Below, piece by piece: positions 874 through 2,416 of a stretch of DNA of 37,598 nt. This stretch comes from an uncultured SAR86 cluster bacterium (lineage in GTDB: Bacteria > Pseudomonadota > Gammaproteobacteria > Magnimaribacterales > D2472): positions 1 to 37,598 of the forward strand of contig CABXFU010000011.1 of NCBI GenBank assembly GCA_902511575.1. Direction: 5' to 3'. The notes under the pieces were generated by a model. It saw nothing but the letters and a program-made list of their open reading frames with translations, had not been told where the DNA came from and made no database searches. A program made the translations under genes and the position numbers. How positions within the stretch are numbered: position 1 is the stretch's first letter; every line of letters begins with the position of its first letter.

Positions 874-911
874 ATTTTTTTAAATTAATGATATTTTTTT
901 TATAAAAAGTG

Positions 912-939
912 TTGACTCTATTTCCTAAAGGCGTATATT
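912..939 (+). promoter_or_regulatory. Sigma-70-type promoter of ncRNA copy 1
   Basis: TTGACT at 912-917 and TATATT at 934-939 are separated by 16 bp. The run just upstream (about 876-908) is almost pure A/T and could act as an UP element. The start of transcription would be near 945. The same elements occur at 2094-2121 in copy 2. Confidence 0.7.
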
Positions 940-944
940 TAATA

Positions 945-1164
945 GACCAACTCGGACCGACTTACAAACAACTGCAGACGGGAGTAAGAGAGAAAGAGAA
1001 GGAAGAGACGAAGGGCGAAAGCGATACTAAGAGTCGACGATAAAAAAGAGCTTAGTAACCCACCAAGAAGGAAAGAGAAAGCCTTCAAGGAGCTAAAGAG
1101 ATTCTCACTTTAGACCCCTTCCAATCTCGAACTGAAAAGACAGAGCCTAGCTCTGTTTTTTTTT
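945..1164 (+). ncRNA. Candidate structured non-coding RNA, copy 1
   Basis: About 220 nt lie between a clear promoter and a clear intrinsic terminator. There is no ATG on either strand, GC is about 46% (97 of 211 bases, 945-1155) in an AT-rich region, and 37 of 40 bases at 981-1020 are purines. Helices that can be drawn by eye: 961-965 with 984-988 (5 bp); 1025-1031 with 1051-1057 (7 bp); 1067-1071 with 1082-1086 (5 bp, A/G-rich loop); 1087-1090 with 1117-1120 enclosing 1093-1098 with 1108-1113 (4+6 bp); and the terminator hairpin. The sequence AGUCG at 1032-1036, in the loop of the 7-bp hairpin, can pair with CGACU at 958-962, giving a pseudoknot or an alternative fold. I do not recognise it as 6S, tmRNA, RNase P, SRP RNA or a standard riboswitch. 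It may be a trans-acting sRNA or a leader RNA of the gene that starts 33 bases downstream. A match to a known marine RNA family such as an IMES motif is possible but untested. Confidence 0.75.
1141..1164 (+). terminator. Intrinsic terminator of ncRNA copy 1
   Basis: CAGAGC (1141-1146), loop CTA, GCTCTG (1150-1155) form a perfect 6-bp stem followed directly by nine T (1156-1164). This is a canonical rho-independent terminator and lies only 32 bases before the next start codon. Confidence 0.88.
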
Positions 1165-1196
1165 GCCTATAATTTTTAAATTATTGAAATTGGTTT

Positions 1197-2039
1197 ATGC
1201 AAAAAAATAAGACAGCATTAATTGTTGAAGGTGGAGGTAGCAGAGGAGTCTTTTCATTTGGCGTAATAGACTCATTCATTAAAGCTTCTTATAACCCATT
1301 TGATATTCATCTTGGTGTTTCTAATGGAGCTGTTGTGCAGCTTTGGTATTTACTTAAAGTTGCAGATTATAACTTAGATAAGATGTTGTTTTCTGCATCC
1401 AAGAAGTATGTTCGATACTCTAATATTCTATTAAATAAAAGTATAATGGATTTTGAAAAACTATATCAAGACGCTAATAGGGTATTCCCTATAGATTTTA
1501 ATCGCCTGGAAAAAAACTTAATTGGTAAGAATTTTTATATTGTTGTTTCCGATGCTATAACTGGCAACCCTGAATACATTGAATTATCAAAAGAGAATTA
1601 TATAAATGAAATGCTCGCAACTGGTTCTTTGCCTGTGTTGATGAAAAATCCAATTTTGCTTGATGGAAAAAGAAAATATGACGGCGGGATAACAGACCCC
1701 ATCCCAGTTCAAAAGGCCTATGACTTAGGAGCCAAAGAAATTGTGATTATAAGAACCTATGAGAAAACATTTATTAGAAAAACCAAATTAGAGAATTATA
1801 TTGCTGCTTTAGCAACAAGAGGTTATCCGGAGATTTCACATGCCCTTAAAACCAATACAAGCACTTATAATTCTGCTCTTGAATTTATTAACAATCCTCC
1901 GAGTGATTGTAAAATTATACAAATCTGCCCACCACACCGATTAAAAACAAGAAGAGCAACCACAAACGTAGAAATTATGAAACGAGATTATCAAGTAGGC
2001 TTAAAACAGGGTAAAGATTACCTAAGAAATAATTCTTAA
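1197..2039 (+). CDS. Patatin-like phospholipase (YjjU/YqhO-like)
   Basis: This 280-residue predicted lipid acyl hydrolase has the patatin signature: glycine-rich oxyanion loop GGGSRG (residues 12-17), nucleophile elbow GVSNG with Ser42, and the DGG motif with catalytic Asp162. Patatin enzymes use this Ser-Asp dyad to release fatty acids from phospholipids or lysophospholipids. There is no signal peptide, so it is probably cytoplasmic or peripheral to the inner membrane. Length fits bacterial YjjU/YqhO-type members. The gene sits alone between the two perfect 267-bp repeats. The ATG at 1197 lies 33 bases after the terminator of ncRNA copy 1, leaving room only for a -10-like TATAAT (1168-1173), so its transcription may depend on read-through of that RNA unit. 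No strong Shine-Dalgarno is seen. The substrate is not predictable. Confidence 0.9.
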   Translation: MQKNKTALIVEGGGSRGVFSFGVIDSFIKASYNPFDIHLGVSNGAVVQLWYLLKVADYNLDKMLFSASKKYVRYSNILLNKSIMDFEKLYQDANRVFPIDFNRLEKNLIGKNFYIVVSDAITGNPEYIELSKENYINEMLATGSLPVLMKNPILLDGKRKYDGGITDPIPVQKAYDLGAKEIVIIRTYEKTFIRKTKLENYIAALATRGYPEISHALKTNTSTYNSALEFINNPPSDCKIIQICPPHRLKTRRATTNVEIMKRDYQVGLKQGKDYLRNNS

Positions 2040-2093
2040 AACATTGATTTTAGGTTATTTTTTTAATTATTATATTTTTTTTGTATTTAGCTG

Positions 2094-2121
2094 TTGACTC
2101 TATTTCCTAAAGGCGTATATT
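2094..2121 (+). promoter_or_regulatory. Sigma-70-type promoter of ncRNA copy 2
   Basis: TTGACT at 2094-2099, a 16-bp spacer and TATATT at 2116-2121, preceded by an A/T-only run. It is identical to the promoter of copy 1. Confidence 0.7.
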
Positions 2122-2126
2122 TAATA

Positions 2127-2346
2127 GACCAACTCGGACCGACTTACAAACAACTGCAGACGGGAGTAAGAGAGAAAGAGAAGGAAGAGACGAAGGGCGA
2201 AAGCGATACTAAGAGTCGACGATAAAAAAGAGCTTAGTAACCCACCAAGAAGGAAAGAGAAAGCCTTCAAGGAGCTAAAGAGATTCTCACTTTAGACCCC
2301 TTCCAATCTCGAACTGAAAAGACAGAGCCTAGCTCTGTTTTTTTTT
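2127..2346 (+). ncRNA. Candidate structured non-coding RNA, copy 2
   Basis: Sequence identical to the RNA of copy 1 (945-1164), so all helices are the same, shifted by 1182. Here the next gene, pyruvate kinase, starts 71 bases after the poly-T run. The two RNAs cannot be told apart by their own sequence, only by read-through products. Either could be a free sRNA, an attenuating leader, or both. Confidence 0.75.
2323..2346 (+). terminator. Intrinsic terminator of ncRNA copy 2
   Basis: The same CAGAGC-CTA-GCTCTG hairpin (2323-2337) and nine T residues (2338-2346) as in copy 1. Confidence 0.88.
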
Positions 2347-2416
2347 GCCTATAATTTTATATCCATAAAACATTCGATAGCTTCACTTTAAAATTTATTG
2401 GAGTATCATCCTGCTC

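What the first reader, a model, noticed from the sequence alone, without database searches (positions are those of the whole stretch)
910..2358. Perfectly duplicated, self-contained non-coding RNA unit flanking a phospholipase gene
Two 267-bp copies (910-1176, 2092-2358) are identical and match the limits of one transcription unit: TTGACT-16-TATATT promoter, about 210 nt without ATG on either strand, and a hairpin plus T9 terminator. GC (about 46%) stands out from the AT-rich surroundings. At least five helices can be drawn. Complete identity in non-coding DNA means either a very recent duplication, gene conversion, or strong constraint. I do not recognise the RNA. This is the best candidate here for an undescribed element.
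Basis: partly seen in the sequence, partly recalled or inferred. Interest (0 to 1): 0.85.

Follow-up and report, generated by a model that had tools for sequence, protein, structure and literature searches.

The report
Self-pairing marine RNA (IMES-1), duplicated
Two identical copies of a known but unexplained RNA of ocean bacteria (IMES-1) flank a lipase gene, and one loop of this RNA changes during evolution yet always stays self-complementary, which predicts that two copies of the RNA stick to each other.

Summary
In detail: 910-1176 and 2092-2358 are identical 267-bp blocks, each a complete transcription unit. The RNA is not undescribed: both copies are full-length Rfam IMES-1 (RF02034, 197.2 bits, cut-off 81). 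Genomes of the window's order carry SAR86 titles; IMES-1 is over cut-off in 121 of 203 of them. It also occurs in four records titled Halieaceae, Luminiphilus or Porticoccaceae.

New here is a covariation signal. The P3 loop holds a 6-nt palindrome (window GUCGAC), self-complementary in 119 of 119 distinct full-length SAR86 cores although it takes 12 sequences, with at least 24 changes on the RNA tree. The four non-SAR86 copies, examined last, all have GCCGGC. A second loop is CUGCAG or CUCGAG. This predicts homotypic loop-loop pairing between IMES-1 molecules, as argued for OLE and GOLLD RNAs (PMC12286853, section 8 read).

In 150 SAR86 genomes Hfq and ProQ were not found; in the window's family CsrA was not found (0 of 90); 141 of 150 have a separate 6S. 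This argues against Hfq-sRNA, CsrB-like and 6S readings there. What the assembly does in the cell is unproven.

The parts
912..939 (+). promoter of copy 1: TTGACT (912-917), 16 nt, TATATT (934-939)
   Evidence: sequence; 89 of 91 tested f1 copies have at most 2 of 12 mismatches to the sigma-70 consensus, 11 of 134 shuffled upstream stretches reach 2. In f2 and f4 no better than shuffles (5 of 27 and 0 of 16 reach 2)
951..1140 (+). IMES-1 RNA, copy 1 (Rfam RF02034, model 1-191)
   Evidence: 197.2 bits, E 5.6e-45
972..977 (+). loop-1 palindrome CUGCAG in the terminal loop 966-983 of hairpin 961-965/984-988
   Evidence: CUGCAG in 92 and CUCGAG in 27 of 119 distinct cores
1023..1059 (+). hairpin P3 (1023-1031/1051-1059)
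   Evidence: in f1 97.9% of cells paired, 148 two-sided changed cells
1033..1038 (+). P3-loop palindrome GUCGAC, the proposed intermolecular kissing site
   Evidence: self-complementary (G-U allowed) in 119 of 119 distinct SAR86 cores, 12 variants; GCCGGC in 4 of 4 non-SAR86 copies
1067..1113 (+). hairpins P4 (1067-1071/1082-1086) and P5 (1093-1098/1108-1113); loops GAGA 1075-1078 and UCUC 1103-1106 are complementary
   Evidence: in f1 P4 100% and P5 99.2% of cells paired; the loop pair is GGGA/UCCC in L283 and GGGU/ACCC in many IMES-5
1141..1164 (+). intrinsic terminator of copy 1: hairpin 1141-1155 and T9 1156-1164
   Evidence: sequence; a stem of 5 or more with a T run in 134 of 134 tested copies
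1197..2039 (+). patatin-like phospholipase (+DUF6363) between the copies; read as a bystander
   Evidence: Pfam PF01734, PF19890
2094..2121 (+). promoter of copy 2
   Evidence: identical to 912-939
2133..2322 (+). IMES-1 RNA, copy 2; loop-1 palindrome 2154-2159, P3-loop palindrome 2215-2220
   Evidence: 197.2 bits; identical to copy 1
2323..2346 (+). intrinsic terminator of copy 2
   Evidence: identical to 1141-1164

Best explanation
The unit is an IMES-1 RNA gene of a SAR86-order bacterium, present twice. Its RNA (about 220 nt, from about 945 to the T run at 1164) folds by itself into a compact structure with a loop-loop contact (L4:L5). It also exposes two palindromic hexamer loops by which it pairs with other IMES-1 molecules: P3 loop with P3 loop and, less surely, loop 1 with loop 1. 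The result would be a symmetric homodimer held at one or two places or, if geometry forbids that, a chain or ring. SHOWN: family, transcription-unit anatomy, intramolecular helices by covariation, and conservation of self-complementarity rather than of sequence in the P3 loop. INFERRED: that the palindromes pair between molecules in the cell. FURTHER INFERRED (my guess about 0.3): the assembly is a stable trans-acting RNA that holds a protein partner through its conserved purine-rich single strands. The extra identical copies are kept alike by gene conversion over the promoter-to-terminator block and act as dosage copies.
For: Identity: (197.2 bits, both copies). Palindrome: 119 of 119 distinct full-length, N-free cores (79 f1, 27 f2, 13 f4) are self-complementary in the P3-loop hexamer, with 12 variants. 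In each family separately it is the only 6-column window with more than one variant in which every variant is self-complementary (of 140, 128 and 173 windows), and 0 of 20,000 re-dealings of the 3' letters reach this. At least 24 changes on a tree built without these columns, all keeping self-complementarity, crude log10 P -23.8. Held-out check: the four copies in records titled Porticoccaceae, Halieaceae (2) and Luminiphilus, read only after the test was made, all carry GCCGGC there (three of them are close to each other). The wobble variants GUCGAU, GUCGGC, GUUGAC, GUGCAU and GUGCGC are self-complementary only as RNA, which argues against a DNA-level cause. Paralogues in one genome are mutually complementary there (25 of 25 pairs; 23 have the same hexamer). 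Loop 1 is CUGCAG or CUCGAG. Precedent for the inference: OLE L9.3 and GOLLD L21a in PMC12286853 (section 8 read). No 6-nt partner inside the same RNA in 109 of 119. Both hexamers are less paired than the RNA as a whole in the predicted ensemble (unpaired: loop 1 0.59, P3 loop 0.75, whole RNA 0.44).
Against: No biochemical data. Loop 1 is almost invariant: one swap between two palindromes, and one IMES-5 has a non-palindromic CUAGAG (G114, 1 of 30). Some hexamer duplexes are weak on paper (GUUGAC -2.6, GUUAAC -3.4 kcal/mol). The hexamers have unpaired probability above 0.8 in only 31 (P3 loop) and 16 (loop 1) of 119 predicted ensembles. In f1, sliding the partner by +3 also pairs 93% of cells, because GAU follows GAC; the largest slid value is 67% in f2 and 31% in f4. 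In the IMES-5 sequences I see no palindrome in the short P3 loop (read by eye, not computed), so this contact is not needed in the wider family. In 9 f1 RNAs a 6-nt internal partner lies at one shared offset near the 3' end. The P3 hexamer was found by looking at the alignment, so the main statistics are after the fact. A joint alignment of all families put f1 three columns off f2 and f4; the register across families rests on the alignment of P3 alone.
Confidence: 0.79

Rival explanations
1. The palindromes are protein or DNA recognition sites (a dimeric DNA-binding protein or a restriction-type site), not RNA-RNA contacts.
For: Several variants are common 6-bp DNA palindromes; loop 1 is nearly invariant.
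Against: 12 different P3-loop hexamers that share little beyond the first G and self-complementarity; 34 of 79 f1 cores carry a G-U variant that is no palindrome in DNA.
Confidence: 0.06
2. The palindromic loops pair with another RNA (a target or a second sRNA) or take part in alternative intramolecular pairing, and self-complementarity is a by-product.
For: Loops are common seed sites; 66 of 119 RNAs have some 5-nt partner elsewhere in the RNA.
Against: Pairing with a different RNA does not require self-complementarity; no consistent 6-nt internal partner (10 of 119, 9 of them at one offset in f1).
Confidence: 0.1
3. An Hfq-, ProQ- or CsrA-dependent small RNA (base-pairing regulator or CsrB-like sponge), as the GGA and A-R-N repeats might suggest.
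For: Purine-rich single strands with several GGA and six consecutive A-R-N triplets in the window copy (sequence); U-tail terminator.
Against: Hfq 0 of 150 and ProQ 0 of 150 genomes of the order, E. coli control positive in both. CsrA in 36 of 150: none of 90 f1 (the window's family) and none of 20 f4, yet both families keep IMES-1. Not tested for the non-SAR86 carriers.
Confidence: 0.05
4. IMES-1 is this clade's 6S RNA.
For: Similar length; high abundance in the ocean (recalled, not seen).
Against: A separate 6S (RF00013) is found in 141 of 150 genomes of the order (108 over cut-off), though not in the window's own 83%-complete draft; the Rfam scan of 880-1200 at E up to 10 lists no 6S match.
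Confidence: 0.03
5. The perfect identity of the pair reflects a very recent duplication, not gene conversion.
For: In the window the two copies have no difference.
Against: The arrangement GH2-like gene - IMES-1 - patatin - IMES-1 also occurs in G004, G018, G021 and G011, with 94.7-98.4% identical copies. The upstream copies of G018 and G021 match each other best, as for an older shared duplication; G004 does not fit this order. In 9 of 25 within-genome pairs the cores are identical and the identity stops 29-72 nt upstream and 24-36 nt downstream.
Confidence: 0.3

Closest known systems
IMES-1 RNA (Rfam RF02034)
   Same: Full-length match, all consensus helices.
   Different: No difference as a member. 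The nested Rfam consensus printed shows neither the palindromic contacts nor L4:L5. I could not read the original description (not held).
IMES-5 RNA (Rfam RF02995)
   Same: Same order of hairpins; CUCGAG in loop 1 in 29 of 30; AAGGGUG 30 of 30, CUUCG at the 3' end 30 of 30, CCAC 26 of 30. The IMES-1 model scores three of them 30-34 bits. I read it as a divergent homologue; Rfam lists no clan.
   Different: 150 positions; P3 short without a palindrome that I can see; L4:L5 often GGGU/ACCC instead of GAGA/UCUC; only 3 of the 30 were picked up by the IMES-1 model at E 1e-3; in the 150 genomes only in families f2 and f3.
OLE, GOLLD and ROOL RNAs (RNA-only homo-multimers, PMC12286853)
   Same: Palindromic loops whose sequence changes but stays self-complementary (stated there for OLE L9.3 and GOLLD L21a; section 8 read).
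   Different: IMES-1 is far smaller and no Rfam relation was found; its variable palindrome is a full hexamer; no structure exists.
6S RNA (RF00013)
   Same: Stand-alone RNA gene of similar length.
   Different: Both occur in the same genomes of the order.
CsrB/RsmZ-type sponges
   Same: Several GGA motifs.
   Different: CsrA was not found in the window's family (0 of 90).

Membership tests
IMES-1 (RF02034) | score above Rfam gathering cut-off over the whole model | tested here: met
   197.2 bits against 81, model 1-191, both copies
IMES-1 (RF02034) | consensus helices supported by covariation | tested here: met
   79 distinct f1 cores: P3 97.9%, P4 100%, P5 99.2% of cells paired, all with two-sided changes; weaker for P1 76.3%, P1b 83.8%, P2 82.3%
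IMES-1 (RF02034) | high abundance in ocean RNA (recalled from Shi 2009 and Weinberg 2009, neither seen) | not testable with these tools
   no metatranscriptome available; look-up of the 2009 structured-RNA paper failed
IMES-5 (RF02995) | score above Rfam cut-off | tested here: not met
   14.1 bits against 96.1 for the window copy
RNA-only homo-multimers (OLE/GOLLD kind) | symmetric loop with covarying palindrome | tested here: met
   119 of 119 distinct cores, 12 variants; 4 of 4 held-out copies
RNA-only homo-multimers (OLE/GOLLD kind) | multimer observed with purified RNA | not testable with these tools
   needs mass photometry, native gel or cryo-EM
6S RNA | match to the 6S model | tested here: not met
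   no 6S match at E up to 10 in 880-1200; a 6S elsewhere in 141 of 150 genomes of the order
CsrB/RsmZ sponge | CsrA encoded in the same genome | tested here: not met
   0 of 90 f1 genomes including the own 83%-complete draft; found in 16 of 20 f2 and 20 of 20 f3
Hfq- or ProQ-dependent sRNA | Hfq or ProQ encoded in the genome | tested here: not met
   0 of 150 each, of which 40 genomes at least 90% complete
RNase P specificity domain | sequence similarity beyond chance | tested here: not met
   in 9 of 10 genomes at least 36 of 300 shuffles score as high; in one (G095) 9 of 300

The most novel reading that the evidence does not exclude
IMES-1 is a small natural RNA (about 220 nt) built to self-assemble. 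Two palindromic loops let identical copies join at two points, giving a symmetric dimer or an open-ended chain or ring; in SAR86 this happens in cells where neither Hfq nor ProQ was found. The contact surface has drifted repeatedly (12 P3-loop hexamers in the order) under selection for self-recognition alone, which would give each lineage its own 'self' code.
Probability: 0.5. Interest if true: 0.85.

Novelty: new variant of a known kind. Interest (0 to 1): 0.62.

Why it matters
IMES-1 is recalled as one of the most abundant RNAs in ocean surface metatranscriptomes, with unknown function and, in 2009, unknown host (recalled, not seen). This work places it in SAR86 and a few other marine gammaproteobacterial records, links it to IMES-5, argues against the 6S, CsrB and Hfq readings in SAR86, and gives a specific, cheap prediction: it associates with itself through named hexamers. 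If true, natural RNA quaternary structure is not limited to very large ornate RNAs, and palindrome covariation becomes a general screen for RNA self-assembly among Rfam families.

Tried and rejected
Undescribed RNA: rejected, IMES-1. 6S. CsrA sponge. Hfq or ProQ client. RNase P S-domain relative (short shared GGGUGAAA): local alignments no better than shuffles in 9 of 10 genomes. Phage-borne copies: 10 viral contigs hold the short loop-1 pattern, none reaches the IMES-1 cut-off in the stretches held (0 of 10). IMES-2 in the order: 0 of 60, but the control rang nowhere, so this shows nothing. Cis-regulator of the neighbour gene: rejected, contexts differ between families.

A sample of 369 genomes of the class gave 3 matches, all of this order. 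Re-reading the pattern scan (119 stretches, capped) then showed otherwise: a crude motif filter flagged 19 of 119, and Rfam scans of 30 of the 119 found IMES-1 in 16 (12 of 12, 4 of 18), four of them titled Porticoccaceae, Halieaceae (2) and Luminiphilus. The other 89 were not scanned with Rfam. Titles are the depositors'; mis-binning is not excluded. This raised my confidence from 0.77 to 0.79, as a held-out test of the palindrome.

Rows dropped before the palindrome counts: five weak matches (G005 26.8 bits and G123:C5 26.4 bits, below cut-off and without the loop-1 motif; G091, G118 and G129:C13:12865, which are IMES-5); matches never fetched (e.g. G013, G034:C72, G048:C4:29, G171, and those beyond the listing); cores with N or under 180 nt; duplicates. 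147 copies in 121 genomes gave 119 distinct full cores. The P4 register was off by one and was replaced.
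Full report
OBSERVATION. The two copies 910-1176 and 2092-2358 are 267-bp blocks, identical base for base, with different bases on both sides. Each runs from just before a TTGACT-16-TATATT promoter to just past a hairpin-T9 terminator. There is no ATG on either strand in 945-1164, and G+C there is 44.1% against 31-35% around.

IDENTITY. Both copies match Rfam RF02034, IMES-1, over the whole model at 197.2 bits (cut-off 81). No other family reaches its cut-off in this stretch. 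The own draft genome (1.39 Mb, 83% complete) holds only these two. Genomes of the order match SAR86 records in contig length and IMES-1 position: CP097973.1 (SAR86 D2474-A1-1, complete) is G032:C1, CACBQK010000018.1 is G045:C18, CAJQGX010000042.1 is G063:C42, CACMVA010000002.1 is G062:C2. The window's own record is unnamed, so its SAR86 placement rests on these relatives.

DISTRIBUTION. Of 203 genomes of the order, 121 are over cut-off. In the 150-genome set 102 match at E up to 1e-3: 69 of 90 in f1, 16 of 20 in f2, 15 of 20 in f4 and 2 of 20 in f3, the last two weak. A sample of 369 genomes of the class gave 3 matches, all of this order. But IMES-1 is not confined to SAR86: PALW01000046.1 (titled Porticoccaceae SAT34, 167.7 bits), CACMGJ010000008.1 (Halieaceae AG-891-G07, 148.2), JADHQF010000079.1 (Luminiphilus, 139.9) and CABYND010000005.1 (Halieaceae AG-894-J17, 136.1) carry it, each with a terminator. 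Copies often lie at contig ends (G017, G027, G028, G030, G039), as expected of identical repeats that break assemblies, so counts are lower bounds.

IMES-5. Three weak IMES-1 matches (G091, G118, G129:C13:12865) are Rfam IMES-5 (RF02995, 124-126 bits). IMES-5 occurs in 30 of 150 genomes: 15 of 20 f2 and 15 of 20 f3, none of f1 or f4. Only these 3 of the 30 reach E 1e-3 with the IMES-1 model. Shared landmarks: loop-1 CUCGAG 29 of 30, AAGGGUG and the 3' CUUCG 30 of 30, CCAC 26 of 30, in the same order of hairpins. I read the two as homologues; the model evidence alone is modest.

INTRAMOLECULAR STRUCTURE. On 79 distinct f1 cores the Rfam helices are supported: P3 97.9% of cells paired with 148 two-sided changed cells; P4 100% with 113; P5 99.2% with 15; P1 76.3%, P1b 83.8%, P2 82.3%. 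Loops L4 (GAGA) and L5 (UCUC) are complementary in all 79, with one two-sided change. The pair reads GGGA/UCCC in the Halieaceae copy L283, and GGGU/ACCC in many and AGGU/ACCU in one IMES-5 (G112). So this is a covarying loop-loop contact, within or between molecules.

PALINDROMES. The P3 loop carries, just before its A-rich 3' half, a hexamer that is its own reverse complement if G-U is allowed: GUCGAC, GUCGAU, GUCGGC, GUUGAC, GUGCAU, GUGCGC, GUAUAC, GUUAAC, GCUAGC, GCCGGC, GGUACC or GCAUGC. All 119 of 119 distinct full-length cores of the order comply: 79 f1 with 8 variants, 27 f2 with 4, 13 f4 with 4. In each family it is the only multi-variant 6-column window of which this is true (140, 128 and 173 windows); the next best in f1 reaches 92% of cells with 3 of 5 variants. 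Dealing the 3' letters anew reaches it 0 times in 20,000. Sliding the partner columns gives at most 67% in f2 and 31% in f4, but 93% at +3 in f1. On a tree built without these columns at least 24 changes are needed; under random substitutions of the same number all keep self-complementarity with log10 P about -23.8 (crude, equal rates, ancestral states limited to those seen). Four non-SAR86 copies read after this test all have GCCGGC at the place. Loop 1 is CUGCAG (92) or CUCGAG (27) in the 119, and CUCGAG in 29 of 30 IMES-5, the exception being CUAGAG in G114.

WHAT IT MEANS. Adjacent bases cannot pair with each other in one strand, so selection for a palindrome in a hairpin loop is best read as pairing between two molecules. 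PMC12286853 argues the same for OLE and GOLLD from loops seen in its cryo-EM structures (section 8 read, passages). G-U variants speak against a purely DNA-level cause. Within genomes with two copies the hexamers are mutually complementary (25 of 25 pairs). No alternative 6-nt partner exists inside the RNA in 109 of 119. In predicted monomer ensembles the hexamers are more open than average but not fully.

CELLULAR SETTING. Hfq 0 of 150, ProQ 0 of 150, with E. coli ringing in both. CsrA 36 of 150: 16 of 20 f2 and 20 of 20 f3, none of f1 or f4. 6S 141 of 150, not found in the own draft. In SAR86, IMES-1 therefore works where these chaperones were not found, beside 6S, and in f1 and f4 without CsrA; the non-SAR86 carriers were not tested. 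Contexts differ: pyruvate kinase, GH2 and others in f1; in f2 an electron-transfer-flavoprotein-dehydrogenase-like gene (c4) upstream and a small DUF1285-like gene (c0) downstream in 16 of 28 rows; in f4 a short-chain dehydrogenase (c8) and a prephenate-dehydratase-like gene (c9) in 16 of 16 (these names are my reading of the sequences, only four window genes were run on Pfam). This marks a free-standing trans-acting gene. The sigma-70-like promoter is clear in f1 only.

THE PAIR. Of 25 within-genome pairs, 9 have identical cores, with identity ending 29-72 nt upstream and 24-36 nt downstream of the core (the G030 pair sits at contig ends, and G061 has N in its upstream flank). The layout GH2 - IMES-1 - patatin - IMES-1 recurs in G004, G018, G021 and G011 with 94.7-98.4% identical copies; G018 and G021 group by position, G004 does not. 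An older duplication kept alike by gene conversion over the transcription unit is my preferred reading (about 0.6); repeated recent duplication is not excluded.

BRANCH COINCIDENCE. An unrooted RNase P RNA tree of 17 genomes separates f1+f4 (support 100) and f1+f4+f2 (99) from f3. On the f1+f4 side CsrA and IMES-5 were not found and loop 1 reads CUGCAG instead of CUCGAG. Within SAR86 this could be one branch, but the non-SAR86 copies also read CUGCAG (they were found by that very pattern, so this is no free evidence), and the direction of change is open. In f2, IMES-1 and IMES-5 share the CUCGAG loop, so they could pair with each other; this is a guess.

LITERATURE. The held library has no paper with 'IMES-1' and none on IMES RNAs under five spellings (2 unrelated papers listed). 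SAR86 with Hfq gave 1 unrelated paper (listing only). A search for RNA multimers led to PMC12286853 and CASP16 papers; PMC12412911 (passages) does not name IMES. The original IMES-1 paper is not held. What I say on its abundance and 2009 host status is recalled. I cannot exclude that its authors noted the palindromes.

Noticed in passing
L205:7079-7267 (+), L283:5057-5241 (-), L211:3233-3419 (-), L266:7173-7359 (+): IMES-1 in records titled Porticoccaceae, Halieaceae and Luminiphilus, outside SAR86; all with P3-loop GCCGGC and a terminator. Host range and possible mis-binning need a proper survey.
   Followed up: partly
L082:3031-3178, L083:3025-3172, L061:2963-3113; family-wide: IMES-5 (RF02995) looks like a divergent homologue of IMES-1 in SAR86 families f2 and f3; Rfam lists no clan for either.
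   Followed up: partly
families f2 and f3: IMES-5 and CsrA are confined to the same two of four families; f2 IMES-5 RNAs hold several GGA motifs. A CsrA-sponge role for IMES-5 is worth a test, but the pattern is one clade-level coincidence.
   Followed up: partly
G093, G099, G105, G108, G111, G114, G129, G135, G141: In f2 IMES-1 and IMES-5 lie about 13.4-13.9 kb apart on opposite strands in nine of nine genomes where both were found on one contig.
   Followed up: no
150 genomes of the order: Hfq and ProQ were not found in any of 150, which I recall as unusual for Gammaproteobacteria.
   Followed up: partly
f2 IMES-5, e.g. L147, L144: 12 of 15 f2 IMES-5 show no run of six T within 60 nt after the core, against 0 of 15 in f3, so they may be part of a longer transcript.
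   Followed up: no
L094 and L095: In G072 and G029 two IMES-1 genes stand in direct tandem, 325 and 315 bp start to start, diverged (92%) and best matched by position between the two genomes.
   Followed up: no
L303:3102-3277: Three consecutive glutamine riboswitch aptamers (RF01739) upstream of the IMES-1 locus of a SAR86 genome.
   Followed up: no
window 1197-2039: Patatin-like phospholipase with C-terminal DUF6363 next to IMES-1 in several genomes of the genus.
   Followed up: no
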